In this document: positions 6,466-54,618 of the stretch, in pieces | Layout: each line of letters begins with the position of its first letter | How positions within the stretch are numbered: the stretch's first letter is position 1 | Origin: a virus | IMG/VR virus record: IMGVR_UViG_3300004806_000019 | Location: 1 to 64,000 of that record | Length of the DNA: 64,000 nt | Strand: one strand, 5' to 3' | The notes under the pieces: generated by a model | Database searches by the model: none | Seen by the model: only the letters and a program-made list of their open reading frames with translations | What the model was told of the DNA's origin: nothing | Program-made: the position numbers and the translations under genes

Positions 6466-6548
6466 CTGCTTTGAGGGCGCAAGCTGTCGCCGGAAAGAAG
6501 CTGTCTCCCCAGGAAATGCTTGAGAGGGTTGATAATGAAGAGAGTTAA
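6387..6548 (+). CDS. small hypothetical protein, 53 aa, overlapping its neighbours
   Basis: Frame beginning at an ATG preceded by GGAGAGGGAAGG, inside the last 79 bases of the methylase gene and running 14 bases into the radical SAM gene. The product (begins MDSMGQSDQQ, ends PQEMLERVDNEES) is hydrophilic with a helical C-terminus. It fills the apparent gap between the two enzymes, and the good ribosome site supports it; no family recognised. Confidence 0.5.
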   Translation: MDSMGQSDQQVYNSEHNSLACWELCIAALRAQAVAGKKLSPQEMLERVDNEES

Positions 6549-7422
6549 GCCTTGGCTCAATAAAGGCTTGGCTATTTGGACTGAGGGTGACACCGCTTAT
6601 TTCTCTGTGGCGTTCACTTGGCGTCTCGATGATGCCTACCAACAAGCCGTTTTCTATAAACAAATGGGTTACAAGATCCGGGCTGGTGGGCCGGGAATCT
6701 TTACAAGGAAGCATTACCTTGCCGATGTCGCTGAGATCGGAGGAGATATTCCTGATGCGGTAACACACCACCATCCCGATGCTACATTTGCCAGCAGAGG
6801 GTGTGATGTTGGTTGTTGGTTTTGTGTTGTGCCAAAGATGGAAGGCAAGACATATACGCTTTTGCCTGATTTCACGCCTAGGCCAATCCTTTGCGACAAT
6901 AATCTCTCAGCACTTCCTGAAGAGTATCAGCGGCATATCATCGAGAAATACAAAGGTGCAGGGGTTCCTCTGCTTGATGCTAACTCAGGATTTGAACCAA
7001 GGACATTTTCAGAGGACGTGTTTCTTAGGTGGAAAGAGATCAACAAGGGCGCTTGGCGGTTTGCCTATGACGACATGAATGATCGAGAGCATGTCGAACG
7101 GGTAATGGCAATGCTGAGAAAGTATGAAGTCTCTCCTGCAAGGATCCAGGTCTATACCTTAATCGGAAATGAGCCAATTGGTGTCTGCATGGGGCGGATT
7201 AAAGAGGTTATCCAATGGGGAGGCCAGCCTTACGCCCAGCCAGTAATGAAGCTTAATGCCTTGAAGAAAGAGCCAATGGTTCGTCACGATTGGAGCCGTC
7301 GAATGCTGATCGATGTCCAGAGATGGGCCAATGGTCGATATTGGAAATATGCTCCAGACTTTGCGGATTACCGTAGGTCAACATACACATCAAAACAGAT
7401 AGAACCGGGGATGTTAATATGA
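6535..7422 (+). CDS. radical SAM enzyme
   Basis: 295 aa. Cys90, Cys94 and Cys97 in ASRGCDVGCWFCVVPKMEG form the C-x3-C-x2-C motif that binds the [4Fe-4S] cluster and cleaves S-adenosylmethionine. Following blocks (ILCDNNLSAL, DANSGFEPRTFSEDV, RFAYDD, IQVYTLIGNEP) fit the partial TIM barrel of the superfamily. ATG 6535 with GAGAGG seven bases upstream is preferred to a TTG at 6520. The stop overlaps the ATG of the PP-loop gene, a pairing seen in other phages. Substrate unknown; nucleic-acid or cofactor modification is the leading idea. Confidence 0.85.
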   Translation: MKRVKPWLNKGLAIWTEGDTAYFSVAFTWRLDDAYQQAVFYKQMGYKIRAGGPGIFTRKHYLADVAEIGGDIPDAVTHHHPDATFASRGCDVGCWFCVVPKMEGKTYTLLPDFTPRPILCDNNLSALPEEYQRHIIEKYKGAGVPLLDANSGFEPRTFSEDVFLRWKEINKGAWRFAYDDMNDREHVERVMAMLRKYEVSPARIQVYTLIGNEPIGVCMGRIKEVIQWGGQPYAQPVMKLNALKKEPMVRHDWSRRMLIDVQRWANGRYWKYAPDFADYRRSTYTSKQIEPGMLI

Positions 7423-8351
7423 TTGAACCAACAGCAGTTGTGTCTTTTTCCGGAGGGAAAGACAGTACCGCAACAGCCATTCTGGCCATAGATCGATATG
7501 GATTAGGGAGAGTAAGACTTGTTTATGCAGACACAGGCAATGAACATGAACTTACCGAAGATTATGTCCGTAATTACATTCCAGAAAGACTTGGGGTCCA
7601 GGTCGAGGTTGTTAGAGCGGATTTGACGCAGGATATCGAGCGTAAGCGTAAATATGTGGCTGAAAAATGGCCAGCCAAAGGGGTTCCTTCTGAAGTTGTT
7701 TCAAGAGCAATGCAGGTTTTGGTTCCAACGGGCGTTCCATTTTTGGATTTGTGTCTGTTGAAAGGCCGGTTTCCTTCCAGGTTAGCGCAATTTTGCACCC
7801 AGTTCCTGAAGAGATATCCATTGGAGAAATATATGTTCTCCATGATTGACGATGGATTCAAGCCTGAGTCCTGGCAAGGGATCCGCAGGGATGAGTCACG
7901 AAACAGAGCCGATGCCAAAGATGAGGAATGGGTTGCAGAGGGATGGAAGGTTGTCAGACCTATTGCAGCCTGGACAGCAGAACAGGTCTTTGATCTTCTA
8001 AAGGAGCGTGGCGTCGATCCTAACCCGCTTTATAAGCTTGGCTGTGGCAGAGTAGGCTGTATGCCTTGTATCAATGCCACGAAAGGGGAAATCAGCGTTA
8101 TAGCGTCTCGCTGGCCTCATCACGTCGATAGAATCAGGGAATGGGAGCATCTGGTTGGGGAAGCCTCTAAAAGAGGGTTCTCTACCTTTTTCACGTTCAA
8201 GGATACTGAGATGTCTCCTGAAGAGGTCTGGAATGTAGGAAACATTGATGAAAGGGTTGCATGGTCTTTAACGGGCCATGGCGGAAAGCAGTTTGATCTG
8301 TTTTCTGTCGATGTTTCTGAATGCTCCTCAATCTATGGGTTATGTGAATGA
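7419..8351 (+). CDS. PP-loop ATPase of the PAPS-reductase/DndC-like family
   Basis: 310 aa. SFSGGKDSTATA (residues 9-20) is the PP-loop that adenylates a substrate. The family-specific track LCLLKGRFPSRLAQFCT and the cluster GCGRVGCMPC put Cys residues where PAPS reductases and the phosphorothioation protein DndC bind an Fe-S cluster. ATGA overlap with the radical SAM gene implies stoichiometric co-expression. Likely chemistry is sulfur or activated-intermediate transfer; true sulfate assimilation is unlikely because no other cysteine-pathway gene is present. Confidence 0.82.
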   Translation: MIEPTAVVSFSGGKDSTATAILAIDRYGLGRVRLVYADTGNEHELTEDYVRNYIPERLGVQVEVVRADLTQDIERKRKYVAEKWPAKGVPSEVVSRAMQVLVPTGVPFLDLCLLKGRFPSRLAQFCTQFLKRYPLEKYMFSMIDDGFKPESWQGIRRDESRNRADAKDEEWVAEGWKVVRPIAAWTAEQVFDLLKERGVDPNPLYKLGCGRVGCMPCINATKGEISVIASRWPHHVDRIREWEHLVGEASKRGFSTFFTFKDTEMSPEEVWNVGNIDERVAWSLTGHGGKQFDLFSVDVSECSSIYGLCE

Positions 8352-17056: not shown

Positions 17057-17264
17057 CGAGGAAGCTGTTCTGATCGTATCTGAGTGTGAAAAAACGATGC
17101 GTTGCAGCCTGCGGTATCCTCCTTGTGAAAGTGATATGGCTCTTGATTGGTATGCTGGTTTGGTCCGTTTGGTAATGATTTGCATGGCAGATAGTTTGAA
17201 GGTGCCACCGGAGAGAATGTTTAGGGCGGTAATGATGCACGATATTGAGGGAGGGATTAATTGA
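17046..17264 (+). CDS. hypothetical protein, 72 aa
   Basis: Overlaps the preceding gene by 11 bases and the terminase small subunit by four. Contains three Cys and a hydrophobic centre (ALDWYAGLVRLVMICMADSL) that may be an amphipathic or buried helix. Not recognised; translation probably depends on coupling. Confidence 0.55.
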   Translation: MSSSEEAVLIVSECEKTMRCSLRYPPCESDMALDWYAGLVRLVMICMADSLKVPPERMFRAVMMHDIEGGIN

Positions 17265-17884
17265 GCAGAGCGCAGCCTAACTTGCTTCCTGGCGGTCTGA
17301 CGATGCGGCAGGCTAATTTCGTTACGGAGTATCTACGGACAGGCGTTGCAATCGACGCTTTCAAGAGGGCCGGGTATTCTTGGAAAAATTCGTCACCTAA
17401 CACCTTGAAGACTGATGTTTACAAGCTCCTGCGTCATCCGAAGATTGTTGACGCCATTGGAAAGGCTCACCACAGGGCGGCAGAAAAGAGTGATCTCACT
17501 GTAGACAAGCTTCAAAGGGAATTGATGCGGATTGCTTTCTCGGATGTCTCTGAAATCTGCGATTGGACACAGAACAGGGTTATTTTGCGATCTTCGGTAA
17601 AGATGGGGAGGGACCAAACCGCAGCGATCGCTGAAGTTAAGAAGACCAAGGATGGGGTTGTGGTCCGTATGCACGACAAGCTTTCAGCGATTGACAAGCT
17701 CTGCAAGATGCTGGGTTTGGCGGAAGGTGCCAAGAAGGCGGGGGACGATGCGAAGGATGTCACGCCAGAGACGGATGAATTGAGGAAGAAGCTGTTTAAG
17801 CTTCTATCAGACAGGAACCGCTCGGATCCGATAGACGAGCCTGCGATTCCTGCTCTGATCGACCAGCCTAATGACAATGGCTAG
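17261..17884 (+). CDS. terS: terminase small subunit
   Basis: 207 aa. The N-terminal DNA-binding part (LTMRQANFVTEYLRTGVAID, KRAGYSWKNSSPNTLKTDVY) follows the Terminase_2 pattern Q-x-x-F-V-x-E-Y-L with a helix-turn-helix that recognises the packaging site. The middle helices and the LSAIDKLCKMLGLAEGAKK region match the oligomerisation domain. It starts at a TTG after GGAGGG. Unusually, the large subunit is not next: reverse-strand genes and a long non-coding region intervene. The stop shares CTAG with the stop of the convergent HTH gene. Confidence 0.82.
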   Translation: MSRAQPNLLPGGLTMRQANFVTEYLRTGVAIDAFKRAGYSWKNSSPNTLKTDVYKLLRHPKIVDAIGKAHHRAAEKSDLTVDKLQRELMRIAFSDVSEICDWTQNRVILRSSVKMGRDQTAAIAEVKKTKDGVVVRMHDKLSAIDKLCKMLGLAEGAKKAGDDAKDVTPETDELRKKLFKLLSDRNRSDPIDEPAIPALIDQPNDNG

Positions 17885-18108
17885 ATTGGACGTTTTGGTT
17901 TCTGAAAGGGTTCAAGGCCAAATGCTATCGCGGCACACGCCAAAGCAATTTGATTTGATATTGGGGTTAGTTCCCCTTTGGCGTTTGTGTACCCGGCTTC
18001 CAGTTGCCAATACCAGTTTTGGGATAGTTCAAGGAGACGAGCGGCTTTCGCTTTGGAGAGGCCCAGGCTTTCCCTCCAGGCTAAAAGTTCGGAATGGTGG
18101 AACGCCAT
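17881..18108 (-). CDS. XRE-like helix-turn-helix protein
   Basis: 75 aa from ATG 18108, six bases after GGGAGGG. The core HHSELLAWRESLGLSKAKAA then RLLELSQNWYWQLEAG is a Cro/XRE-type DNA-binding fold, with A-K-A-A-x-L-L as helix 2 and SQNWYWQLEAG as recognition helix. It is the last gene of the reverse cassette 17881-19300 and converges on terS with a four-base overlap. A regulator of the cassette or of late genes is likely. Confidence 0.75.
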   Translation of the reverse strand: MAFHHSELLAWRESLGLSKAKAARLLELSQNWYWQLEAGYTNAKGELTPISNQIALACAAIAFGLEPFQKPKRPI

Positions 18109-18110
18109 TT

Positions 18111-18347
18111 TCAGCCCTCCCAATCGGAAATGTTGATTTTGATGGTATCTGGGGCGCTGTGAGAGGCGAATCTTTCCGTCTTGACGCTACCGGCATACAC
18201 GAGCAGGCCATTAGCGATCTTCTCAGCCTCTTCGGCGCTGATGTAAACCGTTCCTCTGACGTTAAGGACGGACAAGGCGATTTGGTCGCAATAGCGATGC
18301 AGGCTTATCGCGGCATCCTTGTAGGAAACGGATTTTTCATTTTGCAT
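18111..18347 (-). CDS. hypothetical protein, 78 aa
   Basis: AAGGGG upstream of the ATG, immediately after the stop of the previous gene. Mixed alpha/beta sequence (GTVYISAEEAEKIANGLLVY) of unknown function, in the reverse cassette between terS and terL. Confidence 0.62.
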   Translation of the reverse strand: MQNEKSVSYKDAAISLHRYCDQIALSVLNVRGTVYISAEEAEKIANGLLVYAGSVKTERFASHSAPDTIKINISDWEG

Positions 18348-18353
18348 GATGGA

Positions 18354-18761
18354 TTACCCCTTGATTCGTTTGCAGTGAATGATCTGGGTGTTGTCGCCGT
18401 AGGAGACGCCATGCCACGTCGCTTTGATGTCTCCATTGGAGTCTGGCCCAGCAAACCACACATCATAACGTTTGCCGGCGATGTTATGCCGACCGAGGCG
18501 CCGTTGTCCGACAGTGAATCGGAGTGTACCGGGCCAATTAGAGATTTCGACCTTGCCCCAAGAGTAGTCTTCCTCTCTCGGGCCATGGATGAGGTAGAGC
18601 ATAATTTTCCCTTCCTCGGCCATTTCCTGTCGATCTTGCAAGGCGCAGCAGGCGTAGCAGAACTTGTGGCCATCGGAATTGGTGGCGTAACCCGTTCCGC
18701 ATGTCCCTTCGGGCGTTTCGAGGTCTTGGTCGCATTGAAAGCAATGGAAAGTGTCGGTCAT
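18354..18761 (-). CDS. hypothetical zinc-binding protein, 135 aa
   Basis: N-terminal Cys-rich module FHCFQCDQDLETPEG, CGTGYA, then FCYACCALQDRQ: Cys-x2-Cys and Cys-x2-Cys pairs spaced about 25-30 residues form a treble-clef or ribbon type zinc site. The C-terminal half is beta-rich (GKRYDVWFAGPDSNGD). It resembles small phage proteins seen in accessory operons of many tailed phages; role unknown. Confidence 0.68.
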   Translation of the reverse strand: MTDTFHCFQCDQDLETPEGTCGTGYATNSDGHKFCYACCALQDRQEMAEEGKIMLYLIHGPREEDYSWGKVEISNWPGTLRFTVGQRRLGRHNIAGKRYDVWFAGPDSNGDIKATWHGVSYGDNTQIIHCKRIKG

Positions 18762-18764
18762 GGT

Positions 18765-18980
18765 TCAGGCCCTCATATTCAGGTAAACGAGACGGGCGCC
18801 CGGTGTGGCGTTGGAAAAGGTTTCTTTCTCGGTCGCCATCGTGAAGCCTTGAGCAATCTTTCCCTCAACCCAGAGAGATGCAGCTTTAGAGTCTTCCCCA
18901 AAGTGCATGGTCGTAGAGCGGGTAACGCCTTCCCCATTCTCCCGGCAACCCGCCTCGAAAGTGTAAAGTTTGTCAGTCAT
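18765..18980 (-). CDS. hypothetical protein, 71 aa
   Basis: AGGAG eight bases before the ATG. The product begins MTDKLYTFEAGCRENGEG and looks like a small beta/alpha domain without catalytic residues. Third gene of the terS-terL cassette. Confidence 0.62.
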   Translation of the reverse strand: MTDKLYTFEAGCRENGEGVTRSTTMHFGEDSKAASLWVEGKIAQGFTMATEKETFSNATPGARLVYLNMRA

Positions 18981-19037
18981 AGCTCACTCTCCTGTTGTAG
19001 ATACATTGTAGATACCCCGAAGCTTGGCGCTTCACTC

Positions 19038-19059
19038 AGGACCGACCAAAGCCGGTCCT
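19038..19059 (-). promoter_or_regulatory. intercistronic hairpin
   Basis: AGGACCG (19038-19044) and CGGTCCT (19053-19059) with an eight-base loop, in the 101-base gap between two cassette genes. No U-run follows on the reverse strand, so message stabilisation or partial attenuation is more likely than termination. Confidence 0.4.
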
Positions 19060-19081
19060 GGCTGAAAAACCAAACGGCGGA

Positions 19082-19300
19082 TCAGTCCTCAATCCAGAAC
19101 TGTACCCCTAGGTGATCCGATAGCTTCCTCCCATAAGCCTCAACAGCATCCATATCATCCCCCTCCGCTAACAAAACAGGATCACACCGGTCGTCATTGT
19201 ACAAACCGTACAACTCTAAAACCTCCCCACCACAACGCAGCTCAATCGCCTCAAAAACCCCACGAACCTCAGATACATCGATGTATTTAACTGTAGACAT
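19082..19300 (-). CDS. hypothetical acidic protein, 72 aa, first gene of the cassette
   Basis: ATG 19300 follows AGGAG by eight bases; an open frame extends upstream to 19489 but without a ribosome site and past the promoter. The product (begins MSTVKYIDVSEVRGVFEAIE) is acidic, mixed alpha/beta. It would be the first gene transcribed from the reverse promoter at 19446-19474, downstream of the FNR-like boxes. Confidence 0.6.
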   Translation of the reverse strand: MSTVKYIDVSEVRGVFEAIELRCGGEVLELYGLYNDDRCDPVLLAEGDDMDAVEAYGRKLSDHLGVQFWIED

Positions 19301-19445
19301 GGCGCTTACTCCTCTGTGAAACCTCAAACCAGCAACCCCGCAGCTTCCCTCAATACATAGACCAATCAAAAAACCCCGAAAACTCGCTGTGGACCTAGGT
19401 TTATCCTCTAATCTTTTCCGCCGCAGCATCGTTGCTGTTGCCCCT

Positions 19446-19474
19446 CTTATATCAGTCACTGAGAGGTTTGTCAC
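19446..19474 (-). promoter_or_regulatory. reverse promoter of the terS-terL cassette
   Basis: Reverse strand: GTGACA (19474-19469), 17 bases, TATAAG (19451-19446). It would start transcription near 19439, leaving a leader of about 139 bases. The nearest FNR-like box is centred about 88 bases upstream of that start. Confidence 0.5.
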
Positions 19475-19520
19475 GCGCCAATACCGCAATGACCAAGTTT
19501 TTTACCAATGACCGGTAGAT

Positions 19521-19605
19521 TTGACCTAAATCAAATAGGTATGGCGCCCTGACCTATTGATCTAAATCAATACGTCAGCCTTCCTGACCTATTGATCTAA
19601 ATCAA
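19521..19605. promoter_or_regulatory. three FNR/FixK-type binding sites in tandem
   Basis: TTGACCTAAATCAA at 19521-19534 and two exact copies of TTGATCTAAATCAA at 19557-19570 and 19592-19605. The two latter match the FNR/Anr consensus TTGAT-N4-ATCAA at every defined base. The second and third sites are embedded in a 24-base direct repeat (19548-19571 and 19583-19606); the flank of the first site is in inverted order. Centre spacing is 35-36 bases. They could recruit a host oxygen or redox regulator, or be iterons. Confidence 0.6.
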
Positions 19606-19609
19606 TTGA

Positions 19610-20050
19610 AGCGGCCCTTCGGGGAACATCTAGACGGACCTGGGAGCGTTTCCCCTGGTTAGATGTCCTCCCGAAAAATCGCCCTGGTTGACTCACGTAT
19701 ATGAAACGAGTCCGGGCAAGCCTCCCCCGACGCGCATACATATATGAACGGACAGGACCATGACCTTTCTTCTGCCGATCCGCCCACCGACCTTCCCTTC
19801 TCCTCCTTCCCTACCCTGCACCACAGGACGGCCCCTGGCCGCAACAGTCCCCCCCGCCACCCGCCGCCCCCGGCCCCACACCCCCGAAAACGGGCGAAGG
19901 GGTGGGACTCCCCCCTAGTGTGCCCACACGGTGATTGTCGGGGTTTTTTTTTATAATTTGGAATCTGGTAGGAAAGTCCCCCCCCCGGTGGGGGTGGGGT
20001 TGGCACTGGTGGGATTAAGTTGATTGGAATGAATAGGGTGGTATCGTGTA
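19610..20050. other. structured, pyrimidine-rich non-coding region before terL
   Basis: No credible gene in about 440 bases. It contains an inverted repeat with arms ACATCTA (19626-19632) and TAGATGT (19660-19666) plus an inner stem, a second (GCCC/GACTC at 19681-19694 against GAGTC/GGGC at 19708-19717), a C-rich forward strand (19720-19920), a G4 stretch then nine T (19938-19952), and nine C followed by G-rich sequence (19978-20000) that can fold on itself. Candidates are a packaging site read by the terminase, a structured RNA, or a termination region. Confidence 0.5.
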
Positions 20051-20057
20051 GATTGTC

Positions 20058-20066
20058 TGGTATAAT
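20058..20066 (+). promoter_or_regulatory. extended -10 promoter for terL
   Basis: TGGTATAAT (20058-20066) is a full extended -10 element (TGn plus perfect TATAAT) without a convincing -35. Expected start is near 20073, 21 bases before the terL ATG. Confidence 0.5.
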
Positions 20067-20093
20067 ATAGCCTTGTTGGGATTGGTTGAGACG

Positions 20094-21662
20094 ATGAAAC
20101 TGCTTAAAAGACTAGAGAAGGAGGAATTGGATGCTCTTCAGGAGGAGGAGCGTATTGCGTTGGCGGCGAGGGCTGATTGGTTGGGAAGGGCAGATTCGCC
20201 GGATCGGAAGGGCAAGCAGCGTCTTCCTGGTGGTGATTGGACGATACTTTTGGTTAGGGCGGGAAGAGGGTTTGGCAAGACGGAGATGTTAGTACAGGCG
20301 GGGTGGTGGGACTGTTACGAGTTTCCGGGTTTGATTGTACATGCTTTGGCACCGACGCAGAGTGACGTTCGTGGGACATTGTTTGAGGGTCCGGTTGGTT
20401 TCTGCAATGTTGTACCGAAGGAGTTATTGCTTGGGTGTAGTTTAGACAAGGCATACAACAAGAGCACCCATGAGTTGAGGTTTAAGAACGGGAGTTTGAT
20501 TAGGGGGTTTAGCACGACGGAGCAGGCCAATCGGTTGCGTGGTCCTCAGTGTAATTTGATGTTGGGTGATGAGTTAGCGGCTTGGGATGTACCTGCGGGA
20601 AATTTGGAGACGGCATTTAACGTTAGTATGTTTGGTGTTCGGTTGCCTTATCCGAAGGGTTTGAACGGTGAGTTTTTGCCTGCGAGGGCTGTTTTGGGTA
20701 CGACGCCTAGACCTATTGGCTTCCTGAAGAGGTTAGAGAGGCGTGACGATGTTAAGGTTATTACGGGGAGTAGTTTTGAGAACATCAATAATTTGAGTGG
20801 TGCGTATCGCGCTCAGATTATGAATTTGGCTGGGACGAAAATTGGGAAGCAGGAGATTGAGGGGTTATACGTTGATGAGGAGAATGACCAGAGTATTTTC
20901 AAGCGGGGTTGGTTTCGGTTATGGCCGTGTGAGAAGAAGTTGCCTGAGTTTAGTTTTGTGATGGAGGTTTATGACACGGCTTTTACGGAGGAGACGTTTG
21001 ACAGGAAGCGTCAGGAGAGTGACCCGACTGCTTGTTTGATATTGGGGGTATTTAACATTAATGCGGCGTTTACGGAGAGTGAGCGTCGTCAGATGAATGT
21101 TCGTGCGAAGTACGGTGTTGTTATTTGCGATGCTTGGGCGGAGCGGTTGGGTTTTCCTGAGTTGATGGACAGGGCGAGGAAGCAGCATCGTCTGAAGTGG
21201 GGGGCGCAGGGAAAGCGGAGTGACATAGTCCTCATTGAAGAGAAGGGTTCGGGGATTTCGTTACGTCAGAGCTTGGGGAAGCACGGTGTACCGACATGGC
21301 CTTATAATCCGGGGCGGCAGAGTAAGTTAATACGGGCTAACGCGATTAGTCCGATTGTGGCGCAGGGAATGGTGTTTGTTCCTGAATCGATGCGCCCGGA
21401 GAGGAAGGGTTTGCCTAGAGATTGGGTTGAGCCTTTTTTGGAACAGGTCTGTGCATATTACGGTCCTGGCACTACCGAGCATGATGACTATGTGGACGTT
21501 CTGAGTTCTGGTCTTTTATACCTTCGGAACAGAAGTATGCTCGAGTCTACCACTGAGAATAAGTATTTAGATATGGATGAAAAAAGGGAACAAGATGAAC
21601 GCAAAGCTCAACAAATCTATTACAACCAAAAGTCCTCTAGCAGAGGTAATCCCTACGGCTGA
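20094..21662 (+). CDS. terL: terminase large subunit
   Basis: 522 aa. ATPase half: Walker A VRAGRGFGKTE (about residues 54-64), Walker B-like NLMLGDELAAW, coupling motif VLGTTPRP. Nuclease half: RNase H-like acidic triad candidates in MEVYDTAF, GVVICDAWAE and TEHDDYVDVLS. This is the Terminase_6/phage-type packaging motor that threads DNA through the portal and cuts it. ATG 20094 is preferred to a TTG at 20073. Third codon positions are strikingly G/T-rich, unlike the C/A-rich genes directly after it. Confidence 0.92.
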   Translation: MKLLKRLEKEELDALQEEERIALAARADWLGRADSPDRKGKQRLPGGDWTILLVRAGRGFGKTEMLVQAGWWDCYEFPGLIVHALAPTQSDVRGTLFEGPVGFCNVVPKELLLGCSLDKAYNKSTHELRFKNGSLIRGFSTTEQANRLRGPQCNLMLGDELAAWDVPAGNLETAFNVSMFGVRLPYPKGLNGEFLPARAVLGTTPRPIGFLKRLERRDDVKVITGSSFENINNLSGAYRAQIMNLAGTKIGKQEIEGLYVDEENDQSIFKRGWFRLWPCEKKLPEFSFVMEVYDTAFTEETFDRKRQESDPTACLILGVFNINAAFTESERRQMNVRAKYGVVICDAWAERLGFPELMDRARKQHRLKWGAQGKRSDIVLIEEKGSGISLRQSLGKHGVPTWPYNPGRQSKLIRANAISPIVAQGMVFVPESMRPERKGLPRDWVEPFLEQVCAYYGPGTTEHDDYVDVLSSGLLYLRNRSMLESTTENKYLDMDEKREQDERKAQQIYYNQKSSSRGNPYG

Positions 21663-25462: not shown

Positions 25463-26704
25463 TTATCCTTTACGGATTGAGTCAACCCATAGATATGCCT
25501 TAGCGATACAATCACCCCATTCGTAAAGCCTCTCCTGACGAATAATCTTCATACGAGGATACCAAGGTGACTTATCGCCAGTAGTAACAAGCCAACGCCA
25601 ATCAGGAACGGCAGGAATAAGAAGGCAAACTGGAATATCCAATGCACCGGCAAGATGAGCAACTCCCGTATCACAAGTGACAAGAGCATCCATGGATTTT
25701 AAAAATGTCGCAGCAGCACTCCACTTGGCTTCAATCAACCCAGATAAATCTGTCACCAAAGCTTGCGCTCCAGCATTCGCTATAGCAGCGGAATGCTTGC
25801 CAACCTGAAAGCTGAACAAATCCCAATCAGGGGAATTAGCTAAAGGAAGAAACTCCTCAAAGAGGATGGACCTCCAGCTATCACGCAAATGACCCGTGCT
25901 TCCCGCCCAACAGATTCCAACATTGAACCCTGTGCGACTCTGAGGCTTGTCCATTTCAGCATAGGTAAGAAGACCAGGATCCGAAGGAAGCGTATCCGGC
26001 ATAATGTCAAAAAGCTTCGGAACACTATGAAGAAGGATCTCTTCATCAACTCCATCAACCGCATATCCCTTTAAGGAAATGTCTCCATATTCTTTATATC
26101 CCTGGAATAAGGAGTACATCGAAGCTGGGACGGAAAATGTAACCTTGCTTGCATGTTCAGCAATCAAAGGAACAAACCGGGCAAACTGAATAGCGTCACC
26201 CGCACCCTGTTCACTGGAAATAAGAATATGCTTTCCCTTCAGATCGTCCGGATATCCGCCAAAAGGTTGAGCAACAAACCTATGATCAATTATATTGATC
26301 CTATGTTCGTACTCATTCCACCCCTCATCCCACTCCCCTAGAAGCATCAGAGAGGCCGAATAATCAATATGAAAGGCCGTATTCTCAGGATTATATAAAA
26401 CAGAGGTTGCAAAAGAATCCCTCGATTCCTCAAACAACCCGATTGCACTCTGCGCTAAACCAAGGATGCTCCAAGCACCCCCAATATTCTGGTTCTTATC
26501 GAGAACCTCAGAAACCATAGAAATGGATTCTTCTGGCTTTCCAACGCGCAAAAGAGTGCTGGCCAAATTTAATTGATAGCTAATCTGACTAGGGTCAATC
26601 GATACAGCACGACGCAGACAAGCCTCTGCCGCATGATGATTGCCTGCATTAATCCGGATAATACCTAGGCTTGCAAGCTCACGGGCATAAATCAAAGGGT
26701 CCAT
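25463..26704 (-). CDS. TPR protein with GT9-like glycosyltransferase domain
   Basis: 413 aa. Residues 1-125 are tetratricopeptide repeats (AEACLRRAVSIDPSQISYQL, EESRDSFATSVLYNPENTA). The rest has the pattern of heptosyltransferase-like enzymes coupled to TPRs: GEWDEGWNEYEHR, GKHILISSEQGAGDAIQFAR (donor-site loop), GICWAGSTGHLRDSWRS, and CDTGVAHLAGALDIPVCLLI. It would transfer a sugar to a protein or lipid acceptor, with the TPRs choosing the acceptor. AAGGAA precedes the ATG and the gene follows the SPINDLY-type gene with only one base between. Cargo-type gene, on the reverse strand. Confidence 0.82.
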   Translation of the reverse strand: MDPLIYARELASLGIIRINAGNHHAAEACLRRAVSIDPSQISYQLNLASTLLRVGKPEESISMVSEVLDKNQNIGGAWSILGLAQSAIGLFEESRDSFATSVLYNPENTAFHIDYSASLMLLGEWDEGWNEYEHRINIIDHRFVAQPFGGYPDDLKGKHILISSEQGAGDAIQFARFVPLIAEHASKVTFSVPASMYSLFQGYKEYGDISLKGYAVDGVDEEILLHSVPKLFDIMPDTLPSDPGLLTYAEMDKPQSRTGFNVGICWAGSTGHLRDSWRSILFEEFLPLANSPDWDLFSFQVGKHSAAIANAGAQALVTDLSGLIEAKWSAAATFLKSMDALVTCDTGVAHLAGALDIPVCLLIPAVPDWRWLVTTGDKSPWYPRMKIIRQERLYEWGDCIAKAYLWVDSIRKG

Positions 26705-26705
26705 G

Positions 26706-28469
26706 TTATTCCTTCACAGTAAAAGAGATGGGAGATTTCCCACTGATGTAGGAGAACCATGCAGAGGAAAAAACATTCTCCATGAGTTCTCCAAACTTTT
26801 TGATGTTGCAAAGCGGTGAGCTAAGAAGACGATCTCTCATTCCAAACCTTATCGCTCGTAAATAATTTGGATTCTCCGCAAGGGATATAGCCTTTTTGCG
26901 ATATTCAGCAGGAGAGGAAGCAATGAACTCATCAAGCCATATAGACTTTAAATAGGCTGATGAATGGCGGGAGGGGTAAGTGAACTTAGGAAGAGTGATA
27001 ACCGGCAACCCCATCCATAAGCATTCAGTCGTTGTAACCCCTCCTGCATAGGGAAAGCTATCAAGCGCAATGTCAACCTGACCCATTGCCTCTTGATGCT
27101 CCTCTGAAGAGGAATAGCCAAGAAAGGAAATCCTCTCAGGATTAATCCCCCGATCACTGAACATCTGGCGATAACGAGATACAGTGTCAGGACAGTCCAA
27201 AGCAGGAGACTTCATTAGAAGCTTAGACTTCGGAACAGAGGAAAGAATGTCAGACCACAACGTTATGACGTTAGAGCCAATCTTTTTCAGAACATTGAAG
27301 GATCCAAAGGTGATGTACCCATTCCTGTCAAAGGGTAAGGAAGGAAGAGGATCATAATAAGAAGGCTCAAAACATACCGTTGTATGAGGAAGCTTGATCA
27401 GCTTCTCAGTAAAATACTCGTCCAGGCCATCAAGCTCAGTCTTACTGGCAATCAGGTAATCCATTTGAGGGGAACCCGTAGTGCCAGGATACCCAAACCA
27501 AGTCATTTGAATCGGGGCAGGCTTTCTTGCAAAGACCTCGAGTCTATTCCCAGCCGTATACCCGGCGAGATCAACCAGAATATCAATTTCATCCAACATG
27601 ATACGTTTGTGAAGCTCATCGTCATCTAATCCATAAGCAGGAACAAAGGCCCCAACGTTCCTGAATCTCCTTGAGATATGATCCTCAAGTGGTGTTGTTG
27701 AATAGAAAAACAGGCTATAATTCATGTCAGAAAGGTACTCAGCAACCGGAGCAACCGCTAATCCAACAGGGTGCTTTCTAAGGTCGCCAGAGACAAATCC
27801 GATTGTTGGTCTTGTATGCTCCCGTTTCTGATGGAGCGTAATCGGGTAATTCAGATGACGACGGGCGACAAACTCAGACTGAGCAAGGACAAGAACAGGA
27901 TCATCCTGCCGATAAAGTTCTGAGAAGGCGATATTGAAAGAAGGGTTCTTAGCCATAGGGTCATGGCGCCCCGCTTCCGTAAAACACTGAATCGCTTCAT
28001 CAACCCGTCCCTGATCGAGATAAATATTGCCAAGATTGTTCCAGGCACTCGTAAAAAATGGGTTGAGTTCAAGTGCCTTCTTTAGGGAAACTTCCGCATC
28101 TCCAAGCTTGCGAAGGCTCTGAAGCGTAAGCCCAAGGTTGCTGTAAGACTCACTGCTGTTGGCATTCAAATGTATAGCCTCTCTGAAATGACGTTCAGCC
28201 TCCTCATACCTCATAAGAAGATGACAAAGCAGACCGCAATTAATGTTGGAAGGAAGGTTATCTTTGTTGATAAGGATAGAGCGGCGATAGTCCTCAATCG
28301 CCTTCTTGATGATACCCGTCTGATGCTCAATCATGGCAACATGGGCGTAAAGGTCAGACCGTTCAGGAGAGAGGCAGACGGCAGATCTGAATGTATCTGC
28401 CGCTGCTAAATATTCTCTCTTCATAAAATGACGGGTTGCCTTGGCGAAAAGAGTTACAGCATTCACCAT
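26706..28469 (-). CDS. SPINDLY/OGT-type TPR glycosyltransferase (GT41)
   Basis: 587 aa. About five TPRs (for example AERHFREAIHLNANSSESYS, AEVSLKKALELNPFFTSAWN) precede a GT41 domain with PTIGFVSGDLRKHPVGLAV, DILVDLAGYTAGNRLEVFA, APIQMTWFGYPGTTG, and the nucleotide-sugar segment YAGGVTTTECLWMGLPVITL followed by RHSSAYL. The family puts O-GlcNAc or O-fucose on Ser/Thr of proteins. Inside a phage it might decorate virion proteins or alter host surface proteins. It overlaps the upstream exported-protein gene by seven bases. Confidence 0.88.
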   Translation of the reverse strand: MVNAVTLFAKATRHFMKREYLAAADTFRSAVCLSPERSDLYAHVAMIEHQTGIIKKAIEDYRRSILINKDNLPSNINCGLLCHLLMRYEEAERHFREAIHLNANSSESYSNLGLTLQSLRKLGDAEVSLKKALELNPFFTSAWNNLGNIYLDQGRVDEAIQCFTEAGRHDPMAKNPSFNIAFSELYRQDDPVLVLAQSEFVARRHLNYPITLHQKREHTRPTIGFVSGDLRKHPVGLAVAPVAEYLSDMNYSLFFYSTTPLEDHISRRFRNVGAFVPAYGLDDDELHKRIMLDEIDILVDLAGYTAGNRLEVFARKPAPIQMTWFGYPGTTGSPQMDYLIASKTELDGLDEYFTEKLIKLPHTTVCFEPSYYDPLPSLPFDRNGYITFGSFNVLKKIGSNVITLWSDILSSVPKSKLLMKSPALDCPDTVSRYRQMFSDRGINPERISFLGYSSSEEHQEAMGQVDIALDSFPYAGGVTTTECLWMGLPVITLPKFTYPSRHSSAYLKSIWLDEFIASSPAEYRKKAISLAENPNYLRAIRFGMRDRLLSSPLCNIKKFGELMENVFSSAWFSYISGKSPISFTVKE

Positions 28470-51396: not shown

Positions 51397-54300
51397 ATGT
51401 CAGGGGTAACTTCCGCATTACTCTGGGGCGGCAAAGCACCGGCAGCAGTGGGTCTGTTGGCGTGGGGGAATAATTCTTATGGTCAGCTAGGTCTTGGGAA
51501 TACGACTTATTATTCAAGTCCTAAACAAGTTGGAGCGTTAACAAACTGGTCTAGCATTGTTGGTGGCGCCTATCATGGTGTTTCTATAAAGTCTGATGGC
51601 ACTCTATGGGCGTGGGGATTAAATCAATATGGTCAATTAGGTTTAGGAAATAGAACTTATTATTCCTCTCCAAAGCAAATCGGCGCTTTAACGAATTGGT
51701 CAAAAGTTGCTTGTGGCGGAAGGTTTACGACGGCCATTAAAACTGACGGAACCCTATGGACTTGGGGGTTTAATAATAATGGTCAACTTGGTTTAGGAAA
51801 TAGAACTTATTATTCTTCTCCAAAGCAAATCGGAGCTTTAACTAATTGGTTAAAAGTCGCTTGTGGGTACTATCACACAATAGCGATAAAAACAGACGGA
51901 ACACTATGGACTTGGGGACTAAATCAATATGGTCAGTTAGGTTTAGGAAATATCACGAATTATTCTTCTCCGAAACAAGTTGGATTATTAACAAACTGGT
52001 CCAGTTGCGCTGGAGGGCAATCTCATACAATTGCCATTAAAACAGATGGGACTCTATGGACTTGGGGGTGGAACATTTTTGGTCAATTAGGGCTTGGAAA
52101 CATTACGAATTATTCTTCTCCGAAACAAGTCGGCTTATTAACAAACTGGTCCAGTTGCGCTGGAGGGCATTATCATATAGTGGCAATTAAAACAGACGGC
52201 ACCTTGTGGTCCTGGGGAAGAAACAATTTTGGTCAATTAGGGCTTGGAAACATTACGAATTATTCTTCTCCGAAACAAGTCGGCTTATTAACAAACTGGT
52301 CTAGTTGCTCTGGAGGGCAATATCATACAGTTGCCATTAAAACAGATGGGACTCTATGGACTTGGGGGTGGAACATTTTTGGTCAGCTTGGTTTAGGAAA
52401 TATAACTTATTATTCCTCTCCAAAACAAGTTGGATCTCTTACTTCATGGGTAAAAGTCGCTTGTGGTTTTAACCAAACCCTCGCCATAGGCCGCCCCGTC
52501 CCCGTTGGCCTGATGTCGTGGGGGTATAATGGTTCTGGGCAGTTAGGTTTAGGAAATACGACTTATTATTCCAGTCCTAAAGCTGTGGGACAGTTGACGA
52601 ACTGGTCAAAAATAGCAACAGGTAATACTTTTGTAGCTATAAAAACTGATGGGACACTTTGGGTTGGGGGATGGAATAATAATGGTCAATTAGGGCTTGG
52701 AAACATCACTTATTATTCTTCGCCTAAACAGGTTGGGGCATTGACTAACTGGTCTAGTGTGGCTTGCGGTCAATCCTCTACGGCAGCAATTAAAACTGAC
52801 GGCACCTTGTGGTCCTGGGGAGGGAATCAATACGGTCAACTTGGTCTTGGAAATACCACAAGCTATTCAAGCCCCAAACAGGTAGGTGGTCTAACTAACT
52901 GGTTGGCTCTCGCTTGTGGTGAATACTTTGCTATTGCCACCAAGACTGATGGCACATTATGGGCGTGGGGGCAGAATAATAGCGGTCAGTTAGGTCTTGG
53001 GAACAGAACCCATTATTCTTCTCCTAAACAAATAGGCGCTTTAACAAATTGGTTAAGTGTTGCCTGTGGGAACTATTACGTTTTATCAATTAAGACTGAT
53101 GGATCTCTATGGGCTTGGGGTCAAAATAACTATGGTCAATTAGGGCTTGGAAATCAGACTTATTATTCTAGTCCCAAGCAAGTCGGTGGCCTGACGAATT
53201 GGTTAAAAGCTGTCCCTGGTGGTGGATACTTTGCTATTGCCACCAAGACTGATGGAACTTTATGGGCTTGGGGAAACAACCGATACGGCTCGTTAGGTCT
53301 TGGGAACATTACGAATTATTCTTCTCCAAAGCAAATCGGAGCTTTAACTAATTGGTTAAAAGTCGCTTGTGGGAGCTATCACGTTTTATCAATTAAGACT
53401 GATGGATCTCTATGGGCTTGGGGATTAAATAATTATGGTCAATTAGGGCTTGGAAACATTACGAATTACTCCTCCCCCAAGCAAGTCGGCTCCCTCACCA
53501 CATGGCAGAACGTCGCCTGCGGGCATTTTTCTGTCCTCGCCACGATAGTCCCCGTATCGCCGGGGCTGGCGGCTTGGGGGCAGAATAATTATGGTCAGCT
53601 AGGTCTTGGGAATCGGACTTATTACTCTTCGCCTAAACAGGTTGGAGCGTTAACTAACTGGTCTAGCATTGCTGGCGGCATCTCTCATGTTGTTTCTATA
53701 AAGTCTGATGGAACCTTGTGGGCGTGGGGGGCTAATAACAATGGTCAGCTAGGTCTTGGGAATCGGACTTATTATTCAAGTCCTAAACAAGTTGGCGTTT
53801 TAACGAATTGGTCAAAAGTCGCTTGTGGGTACCTTAGCACAATGGCGATAAAAACTGACGGAACCTTGTGGGCATGGGGTCAAAATGCCCTTGGACAATT
53901 AGGGCTTGGGACCATTACGAATTATTCTTCTCCAAAGCAAATCGGAGCTTTAACTAATTGGTTAAAAGTCGCTTGTGGGTACTATCACACAATAGCGATA
54001 AAAACAGACGGCACTTTATGGACTTGGGGGTATAACTACTATGGTCAGTTAGGTTTAGGAAATATAACTTATTATTCCTCTCCGAAACAAGTCGGCTTAT
54101 TAACAAACTGGTCCAGTTGCGCTGGATGGCAGTATTTTACAGTTGCCACCAAAACAGATGGCACTTTATGGACTTGGGGTCAAAATGCCTATGGTCAATT
54201 AGGGCTCGGAAACATTACGAATTATTCTTCTCCAAAGCAGGTTGGAGCGTTAACTAACTGGTCTAGCATTGCTGGCGGCATCTCTCATGTTGTTTCTATA

Positions 54301-54618
54301 AAGTCTGATGGAACCTTGTGGTCCTGGGGGTATAATAACTTAGGTCAGTTAGGTTTAGGGAATCGGACTTATTATTCAAGTCCTAAACAAGTTGGCGTTT
54401 TAACGAATTGGTCAAGCGTTGCTTGTGGCGGAAGGTTTACGACGACCATTAAAACTGACGGAACCTTGTGGGCATGGGGTCAAAATGCCTATGGTCAATT
54501 AGGGCTCGGAAACATTACGAATTATTCTTCTCCAAAGCAAATCGGAGCTTTAACTAATTGGTTAAAAGTCGCTTGTGGTGGATATACTACCATCGCCACC
54601 TTTGGGGTAATGACGTAA
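51397..54618 (+). CDS. giant RCC1-repeat protein (three seven-repeat propellers)
   Basis: 1073 aa. I count 21 repeats of about 50 residues with the core G-Q-L-G-L-G-N-x-T-x-Y-S-S-P-K-Q and A-I-K-T-D-G-T-L-W-x-W-G. They fall into three blocks of seven (about residues 17-364, 365-716, 717-1073), separated by linkers such as GRPVPVGLMSWG and VPVSPGLAAWG. RCC1 itself is a single seven-bladed propeller, so three propellers in series are predicted. Propellers bind proteins or glycans; here a receptor-binding or glycan-binding appendage is likely. Repeats are nearly identical in DNA, implying recent copying. It lies between fibre genes and the sulfotransferase gene. Confidence 0.85.
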   Translation: MSGVTSALLWGGKAPAAVGLLAWGNNSYGQLGLGNTTYYSSPKQVGALTNWSSIVGGAYHGVSIKSDGTLWAWGLNQYGQLGLGNRTYYSSPKQIGALTNWSKVACGGRFTTAIKTDGTLWTWGFNNNGQLGLGNRTYYSSPKQIGALTNWLKVACGYYHTIAIKTDGTLWTWGLNQYGQLGLGNITNYSSPKQVGLLTNWSSCAGGQSHTIAIKTDGTLWTWGWNIFGQLGLGNITNYSSPKQVGLLTNWSSCAGGHYHIVAIKTDGTLWSWGRNNFGQLGLGNITNYSSPKQVGLLTNWSSCSGGQYHTVAIKTDGTLWTWGWNIFGQLGLGNITYYSSPKQVGSLTSWVKVACGFNQTLAIGRPVPVGLMSWGYNGSGQLGLGNTTYYSSPKAVGQLTNWSKIATGNTFVAIKTDGTLWVGGWNNNGQLGLGNITYYSSPKQVGALTNWSSVACGQSSTAAIKTDGTLWSWGGNQYGQLGLGNTTSYSSPKQVGGLTNWLALACGEYFAIATKTDGTLWAWGQNNSGQLGLGNRTHYSSPKQIGALTNWLSVACGNYYVLSIKTDGSLWAWGQNNYGQLGLGNQTYYSSPKQVGGLTNWLKAVPGGGYFAIATKTDGTLWAWGNNRYGSLGLGNITNYSSPKQIGALTNWLKVACGSYHVLSIKTDGSLWAWGLNNYGQLGLGNITNYSSPKQVGSLTTWQNVACGHFSVLATIVPVSPGLAAWGQNNYGQLGLGNRTYYSSPKQVGALTNWSSIAGGISHVVSIKSDGTLWAWGANNNGQLGLGNRTYYSSPKQVGVLTNWSKVACGYLSTMAIKTDGTLWAWGQNALGQLGLGTITNYSSPKQIGALTNWLKVACGYYHTIAIKTDGTLWTWGYNYYGQLGLGNITYYSSPKQVGLLTNWSSCAGWQYFTVATKTDGTLWTWGQNAYGQLGLGNITNYSSPKQVGALTNWSSIAGGISHVVSIKSDGTLWSWGYNNLGQLGLGNRTYYSSPKQVGVLTNWSSVACGGRFTTTIKTDGTLWAWGQNAYGQLGLGNITNYSSPKQIGALTNWLKVACGGYTTIATFGVMT
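51450..54600 (+). repeat. tandem coding repeats of about 150 bases
   Basis: The RCC1 array at DNA level. Some units are identical over 80 bases or more, for example 53641-53721 and 54241-54321, exactly 600 bases (four units) apart. Units are AT-rich, while the seams between blocks (about 52490-52520 and 53500-53570) are distinctly GC-rich. Such an array can gain or lose units by recombination or slippage. Confidence 0.85.

What the first reader, a model, noticed from the sequence alone, without database searches (positions are those of the whole stretch)
19521..19605. Three FNR/FixK-type boxes in a phage intergenic region
Two sites match TTGAT-N4-ATCAA perfectly and one has a single change; they recur at 35-36 bases, two of them inside a 24-base direct repeat. 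A phage whose cassette or late genes respond to a host oxygen/redox regulator would be unusual. The nearest mapped promoter is the reverse promoter at 19446-19474, with the first site about 88 bases upstream of its start, so activation from a distance, repression of something else, or a decoy that titrates the host regulator are all possible.
Basis: partly seen in the sequence, partly recalled or inferred. Interest (0 to 1): 0.7.

Follow-up and report, generated by a model that had tools for sequence, protein, structure and literature searches.

The report
Oxygen-regulator-type operator array in a phage
A phage carries, in its main regulatory gap, three DNA sites that look like the ones bacteria use to switch genes by oxygen or redox state, and similar arrays recur in a few unrelated phages, so some phages may tune infection to how the host is respiring; binding has not been shown.

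Summary
Three 14-bp palindromes (TTGACCTAAATCAA, then TTGATCTAAATCAA twice) start at 19521, 19557 and 19592. None of 150 simulated genomes had three such sites within 100 bp. They lie in a 791-bp non-coding gap between terL (rightward) and a leftward operon of small genes ending in an XRE-type gene. That operon has one good sigma70-like promoter, with the sites at about -88, -124 and -159.

The FNR/FixK-type reading gains support. The same 14-mer is enriched in beta- and alphaproteobacterial genomes (50 copies against 2 for its letter-reversed control), including beside hemN and cytochrome c peroxidase. In IMG/VR, tandem sites outside open frames share a TA centre that coding matches lack (p = 3e-5), and five array lineages lie beside packaging genes. 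Two phages that share early genes but have unrelated terminases keep identical sites in DNA that otherwise aligns poorly. No phage CRP/FNR protein and no shared phage regulator was found.

Not shown: binding, host, oxygen response or its sign. Spacing here is not canonical for activation, and 80 portal relatives lack the array. Best reading: operator array for a host CRP/FNR-family protein (0.62), most likely modulating the leftward operon (about 0.4 overall).

The parts
19521..19534 (.). Site 1, TTGACCTAAATCAA (one change from TTGATN4ATCAA)
19557..19570 (.). Site 2, TTGATCTAAATCAA (perfect)
19592..19605 (.). Site 3, TTGATCTAAATCAA (perfect)
19548..19571 (+). 24-bp direct repeat, copy 1 (CCTGACCTATTGATCTAAATCAAT)
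19583..19606 (+). 24-bp direct repeat, copy 2
19446..19474 (-). Predicted sigma70-like promoter GTGACA-17-TATAAG with extended -10, start about 19439
   Evidence: prediction only
17893..19302 (-). Leftward operon: 72-aa, 71-aa, 135-aa and 78-aa proteins of unknown function, then an XRE-type HTH protein (17893-18108); likely target of the array
   Evidence: operon structure inferred from spacing and strand
20094..21662 (+). Terminase large subunit (terL), on the other side of the gap; extended -10 promoter at about 20061
17261..17884 (+). Terminase small subunit (Terminase_2), separated from terL by the leftward operon

Best explanation
The three palindromes are an operator array for a host transcription factor of the CRP/FNR family (FNR, FixK, Anr or DNR type), placed in the phage's main divergent regulatory gap. 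The host protein, active at low oxygen or in response to NO/redox, would bind the sites as dimers and modulate the leftward operon of small, probably early genes whose sigma70-like promoter lies about 50 bp beyond site 1. Shown by sequence: the sites, their FNR-type detail, and the recurrence of such arrays in phages. Inferred: binding by a host protein, the leftward promoter as target, and any response to oxygen. In three cousin arrays the two sites are 31 bp (three helical turns) apart and near -60/-91, -80/-111 and -63/-94 of a promoter, which suits class I activation. Here the 35-36 bp spacing and the -88 position do not, so a negative or indirect effect is as likely as activation. Probability about 0.62 for host CRP/FNR-family binding, about 0.4 that the leftward operon is also the target.
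For: Cluster beyond chance. The 14-mer TTGATCTAAATCAA occurs 30 times against 1 for its letter-reversed control in 150 genomes of a betaproteobacterial order and 20 against 1 in 142 alphaproteobacterial genomes; 11 of 20 inspected copies are intergenic, next to hemN, di-haem cytochrome c peroxidase, DUF2189 and others. Published targets: TTGAT-N4-ATCAA and TTGACttagATCAA for FnrL (PMC2908626); TTGATnnnnATCAA for DNR (PMC1274295). IMG/VR tandem sites not covered by an open frame have a TA centre in 10 of 16 cases against 8 of 76 when covered (p = 3e-5). The stricter tandem pattern gives 14 stretches against 4 for the reversed control. Five array lineages lie beside packaging genes. L043 and L176 keep identical sites although terminases are unrelated and the surrounding DNA aligns poorly; L162 and L163 differ at one site by a symmetric change. 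No phage CRP/FNR protein above cut-off and no shared regulator.
Against: No binding or expression data; host unknown. Positions -88.5, -124.5, -159.5 are not canonical for class I or II activation, and the leftward promoter looks strong without help. ACCTA/CCTGACCTA next to the palindromes is also repeated. The array is missing from 80 portal relatives, and terL relatives of the cousin phages lack arrays too. The exact tandem of this motif was not found in 274 genomes of the class of a betaproteobacterial MAG.
Confidence: 0.62

Rival explanations
1. Phage operator: the array is bound by a phage-coded regulator, most simply the XRE-type protein 17893-18108 that is the last gene of the leftward operon, which would control its own promoter.
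For: An HTH gene lies in the operon next to the array. The motif occurs as a cluster only here in the genome. Sequence outside the palindrome, CCTGACCTA, is repeated as well. Many phages use two or three operators in such a gap (general knowledge).
Against: The same host-type motif recurs in unrelated phages that share no regulator detectable at E 1e-4, and it is enriched in bacterial genomes at non-phage genes. The sites do not overlap the promoter.
Confidence: 0.22
2. Replication or packaging element: the repeats are iterons of an origin, or terminase-binding sites beside terL.
For: Long non-coding gap next to terminase, repeats, and the sharpest keto-skew flip of the record across 19.0-20.5 kb. 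Several cousin arrays also lie beside terminase. L017 has five head-to-tail 28-bp units with the same core, which looks iteron-like.
Against: L043 and L176 keep the array while having unrelated terminases. Cousin terminases are of different families but the motif is the same. The replication genes lie about 10 kb away. Skew may simply follow divergent transcription.
Confidence: 0.1
3. Decoy: the array titrates the host regulator rather than controlling a phage promoter.
For: Uncanonical distance to every predicted promoter. FNR activates CRISPR-Cas in Citrobacter rodentium (PMC12669028), so lowering free FNR could pay.
Against: Only three sites per genome; cousin arrays sit at positions that suit direct promoter control; a place in the regulatory gap needs no decoy.
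Confidence: 0.06

Closest known systems
FNR/FnrL/FixK/Anr/DNR operators of proteobacteria (TTGAT-N4-ATCAA)
   Same: Same 14-bp palindrome and variants (TTGAC/ATCAA), TA centre, intergenic place upstream of a sigma70-like promoter
   Different: Carried by a phage, three in tandem at 35-36 bp, distance to promoter not canonical, binding untested
Predicted EtrA (Fnr) site before LambdaSo prophage genes SO2957-2962 in Shewanella oneidensis (PMC3078092)
   Same: An Fnr-type site assigned to phage genes
   Different: A single predicted site in a prophage, with phage induction judged mostly indirect by its authors; here an array in a phage without a detected integrase and in several unrelated phages
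Multiple phage operators (lambda OR/OL type)
   Same: Several related palindromes in a divergent regulatory gap
   Different: Spacing 35-36 bp, no overlap with the promoter, motif shared with host genes, no demonstrated repressor
FNR control of CRISPR-Cas (cas3) in Enterobacteriaceae (PMC12669028)
   Same: FNR links anoxia to the phage-host contest
   Different: There the host's defence is switched; here the sites lie in the phage

Membership tests
CRP/FNR-family operator (FNR/FixK/Anr/DNR type) | Dyad TTGAT/C-N4-A/GTCAA | tested here: met
   Two perfect sites and one with C at position 5, a variant found among FnrL ChIP sites
CRP/FNR-family operator (FNR/FixK/Anr/DNR type) | Same sequence over-represented in bacteria at genes of anaerobic or microaerobic metabolism | tested here: met
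   50 against 2 control; hemN, cytochrome c peroxidase, DUF2189 among neighbours, though others have no obvious link
CRP/FNR-family operator (FNR/FixK/Anr/DNR type) | Canonical distance to a promoter (-41.5, or about -61.5/-71.5/-82.5/-92.5) | tested here: not met
   -88.5, -124.5, -159.5 for the only good leftward promoter. Repressing and non-classical sites need not meet this
CRP/FNR-family operator (FNR/FixK/Anr/DNR type) | Bound by a CRP/FNR-family protein of the host | not testable with these tools
   Host unknown; no binding data
Phage repressor operator | Cognate regulator coded by the phage, common to phages with the same operator | tested here: inconclusive
   XRE gene in the operon, but no regulator shared among array phages at E 1e-4; small HTH proteins could be missed
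Packaging (cosB-like) site | Array goes with its terminase between phages | tested here: not met
   L043 and L176 share the array type and early genes but have unrelated terminases
Origin iterons | Repeats near the initiator gene in an AT-rich stretch that drives replication | not tested
   Replication-initiation-like gene lies at 9.0-9.6 kb; the array stretch is not AT-rich; function cannot be tested here

The most novel reading that the evidence does not exclude
Several unrelated phages, with no integrase found in the five longer records checked, have independently placed arrays of host FNR-type operators in the gap between small (early-type) genes and packaging genes, so that the strength or timing of infection is gated by the host's oxygen or redox state.
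Probability: 0.33. Interest if true: 0.8.

Novelty: new variant of a known kind. Interest (0 to 1): 0.55.

Why it matters
Phages are known to use host regulators such as CRP, but oxygen or redox control written into a phage's main regulatory gap appears little studied (I found one predicted Fnr site in a prophage, PMC3078092). The recurrence in unrelated phages, with sites kept while neighbouring DNA and packaging genes change, gives a concrete set of loci to test. If true, infection outcome would depend on oxygen in lakes, sediments and guts, which fits with FNR also switching on CRISPR-Cas in anoxia (PMC12669028).

Tried and rejected
Conservation in relatives: 80 portal-related IMG/VR loci (43-50% identity) and regions of Caulobacter phage RW, Roseobacter CRP-901/902 and ctpbd312 have no array; a relative of operon gene 18354-18761 (L069, 52%) has none. 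Cultured or sequenced relatives of the cousin phages' terminases (L180-L189) have none. Phage-coded CRP/FNR protein: only a 17.7-bit partial match inside a 3,921-aa protein, rejected. RNA structure in leader or right flank: no signal. Rfam: nothing. Most of the 55 tandem hits lie in open frames and were discounted, as were L037, L165-L167, L173, L175 and L177-L179. Class II promoters at -41.5 from each of our sites, both directions: no credible -10 (and by eye). My first coding/non-coding split of the IMG/VR hits was by judgement (p = 1e-8); I replaced it by an objective open-frame split with identical arrays collapsed (p = 3e-5). Sample identifiers in the paper library: none. Host not assigned: terminase and portal relatives point to Caulobacter and Roseobacter phages, MAG contigs with related portals to Betaproteobacteria and others.

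Full report
What is there. The window is the first 64 kb of an 84,223-bp IMG/VR virus record. A second record of 89,399 bp is identical over the 17.6 kb compared. Terminase and portal are nearest to Caulobacter phages RW/GB2A/RLK/KcrB (37% and 46% identity), then for the portal to Roseobacter phages. No phage integrase domain was found in the longer record, so it is probably virulent. The finding lies in a 791-bp non-coding region, 19303-20093. To its right is terL. To its left is a leftward operon of four unknown small genes and an XRE-like gene, lying between terL and terS (17261-17884, Terminase_2).

The three palindromes are where stated, 36 and 35 bp apart, two within a 24-bp repeat. In 150 simulated genomes of the same dinucleotide make-up there were never two perfect sites, or three sites with at most one mismatch, within 100 bp. 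Sites 2 and 3 are probably one duplication, so the honest count is two matches and a copy.

The promoter. GTGACA-17-TATAAG with an extended -10 is the best leftward promoter in the gap, start about 19439, site centres at -88.5, -124.5 and -159.5. Its score is close to, not above, the 95% level of shuffles, and no start has been mapped. The terL promoter (TATAAT at 20061) is about 475 bp from the nearest site.

Is the motif really FNR-type? The published target is TTGAT-N4-ATCAA, with TTGAC/ATCAA variants among FnrL ChIP sites (PMC2908626); DNR and HcpR have related sites (PMC1274295). The exact 14-mer TTGATCTAAATCAA was counted in bacterial genomes against the same letters reversed: 30 against 1 in 150 genomes of the order of a betaproteobacterial MAG, and 20 against 1 in 142 genomes of the class of a Maricaulis MAG, i.e. 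Alphaproteobacteria. Of 20 copies inspected, 11 are intergenic by a crude gene call. Their neighbours include hemN, a di-haem cytochrome c peroxidase and DUF2189, along with genes of no obvious oxygen link. The known link of hemN and cytochrome c peroxidase to FNR-type regulators is general knowledge.

Is it peculiar to this phage? A scan of 2.9 million viral contigs for two TTGATN4ATCAA sites 5-35 bp apart gave 55 stretches, most of them in open reading frames. With identical arrays collapsed, those not covered by an open frame of 60 codons have a TA centre in 10 of 16 sites against 8 of 76 for the covered ones (p = 3e-5). With TTGAYNTANRTCAA the scan gave 14 stretches against 4 for the letter-reversed control, and 9 at wider spacing. 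Of the non-coding arrays, five lineages lie beside packaging genes: this phage; L039/L043 together with L176; L058/L020; L162/L168/L163; and L164. L007, L017, L021, L032, L060 and L174 do not, or cannot be placed. The gap beside terminase is also where regulatory sites would naturally lie, so I give no p-value for this.

Two comparisons speak for selection on the palindromes. Phages L043 and L176 share many early genes at about 90% identity but have unrelated terminases; the DNA around their arrays aligns poorly, yet both 14-mers are identical. L162 and L163 differ in one site by a symmetric change, TTGATttatATCAA to TTGACatatGTCAA, as expected for a site bound by a dimer. Because the array stays when terminase differs, a packaging role is unlikely.

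Host or phage factor? None of the array phages has a CRP/FNR DNA-binding domain above cut-off, and an all-against-all comparison of their proteins shows no common regulator. Several records are fragments and small HTH proteins diverge fast, so a phage operator remains the main rival.

What it does. In L162, L163 and L164 the two sites are 31 bp apart, three helical turns, and near -60/-91, -80/-111 and -63/-94 of a promoter (the L164 value was measured by hand, because its promoter has a poor -35). These suit class I activation (positions from general knowledge of CRP/FNR). Here 35-36 bp and -88 do not, and the leftward promoter is near consensus. I therefore commit to modulation of the leftward small-gene operon by a host FNR-type protein, sign unknown, at about 0.4 overall, within 0.62 for host CRP/FNR-family binding at all.

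What does not fit. ACCTA adjoins all three palindromes, TGACC occurs five times on one strand, and CCTGACCTA is repeated with the duplicated palindrome. A second protein or an extended contact is possible. The sharpest keto-skew flip of the record crosses this gap, unexplained.

Precedents. A predicted EtrA (Fnr) site is assigned to LambdaSo prophage genes in Shewanella, with phage induction judged mostly indirect (PMC3078092). FNR activates CRISPR-Cas in Citrobacter rodentium (PMC12669028). I found no paper describing FNR-type arrays in phage regulatory gaps, in a library that lacks most subscription papers.

Noticed in passing
window 19001-21000: The lowest and highest keto skew (G+T against A+C) of the whole 84-kb record lie within 1.5 kb of each other on either side of the array's gap; terL and the 72-aa divergent gene have unusually GT-rich sense strands. 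Origin or strong divergent transcription are possible causes.
   Followed up: partly
window 19490-19600: TGACC occurs five times on the + strand and ACCTA adjoins each palindrome, suggesting a second binding element.
   Followed up: partly
window 19606-19990: Rest of the gap: a strong but not significant hairpin (19606-19720, z = -1.3) and a long C-rich stretch with G-runs at 19740-19990, perhaps a packaging or end site.
   Followed up: no
L017:2505-2630: Five head-to-tail 28-bp units, each with TTGATATAGATCAA, in a 26% GC phage fragment beside a major tail protein gene: an iteron-like array with the same core.
   Followed up: no
window 25463-28469: Leftward genes inside the head-gene region: a TPR protein and a TPR protein with a family 41 glycosyltransferase (O-GlcNAc-transferase-like) domain.
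   Followed up: no
window 51397-54618: 1,073-aa virion-region protein with about 20 RCC1 repeats.
   Followed up: no
G000:C1:81132-82211 (L005:17632-18711): TnpB-like protein (Cas12f1-like TNB and OrfB_IS605 domains) in the phage.
   Followed up: no
window 6535-8351: Neighbouring radical SAM and PAPS-reductase-like genes, possibly a DNA or nucleotide modification pair.
   Followed up: no
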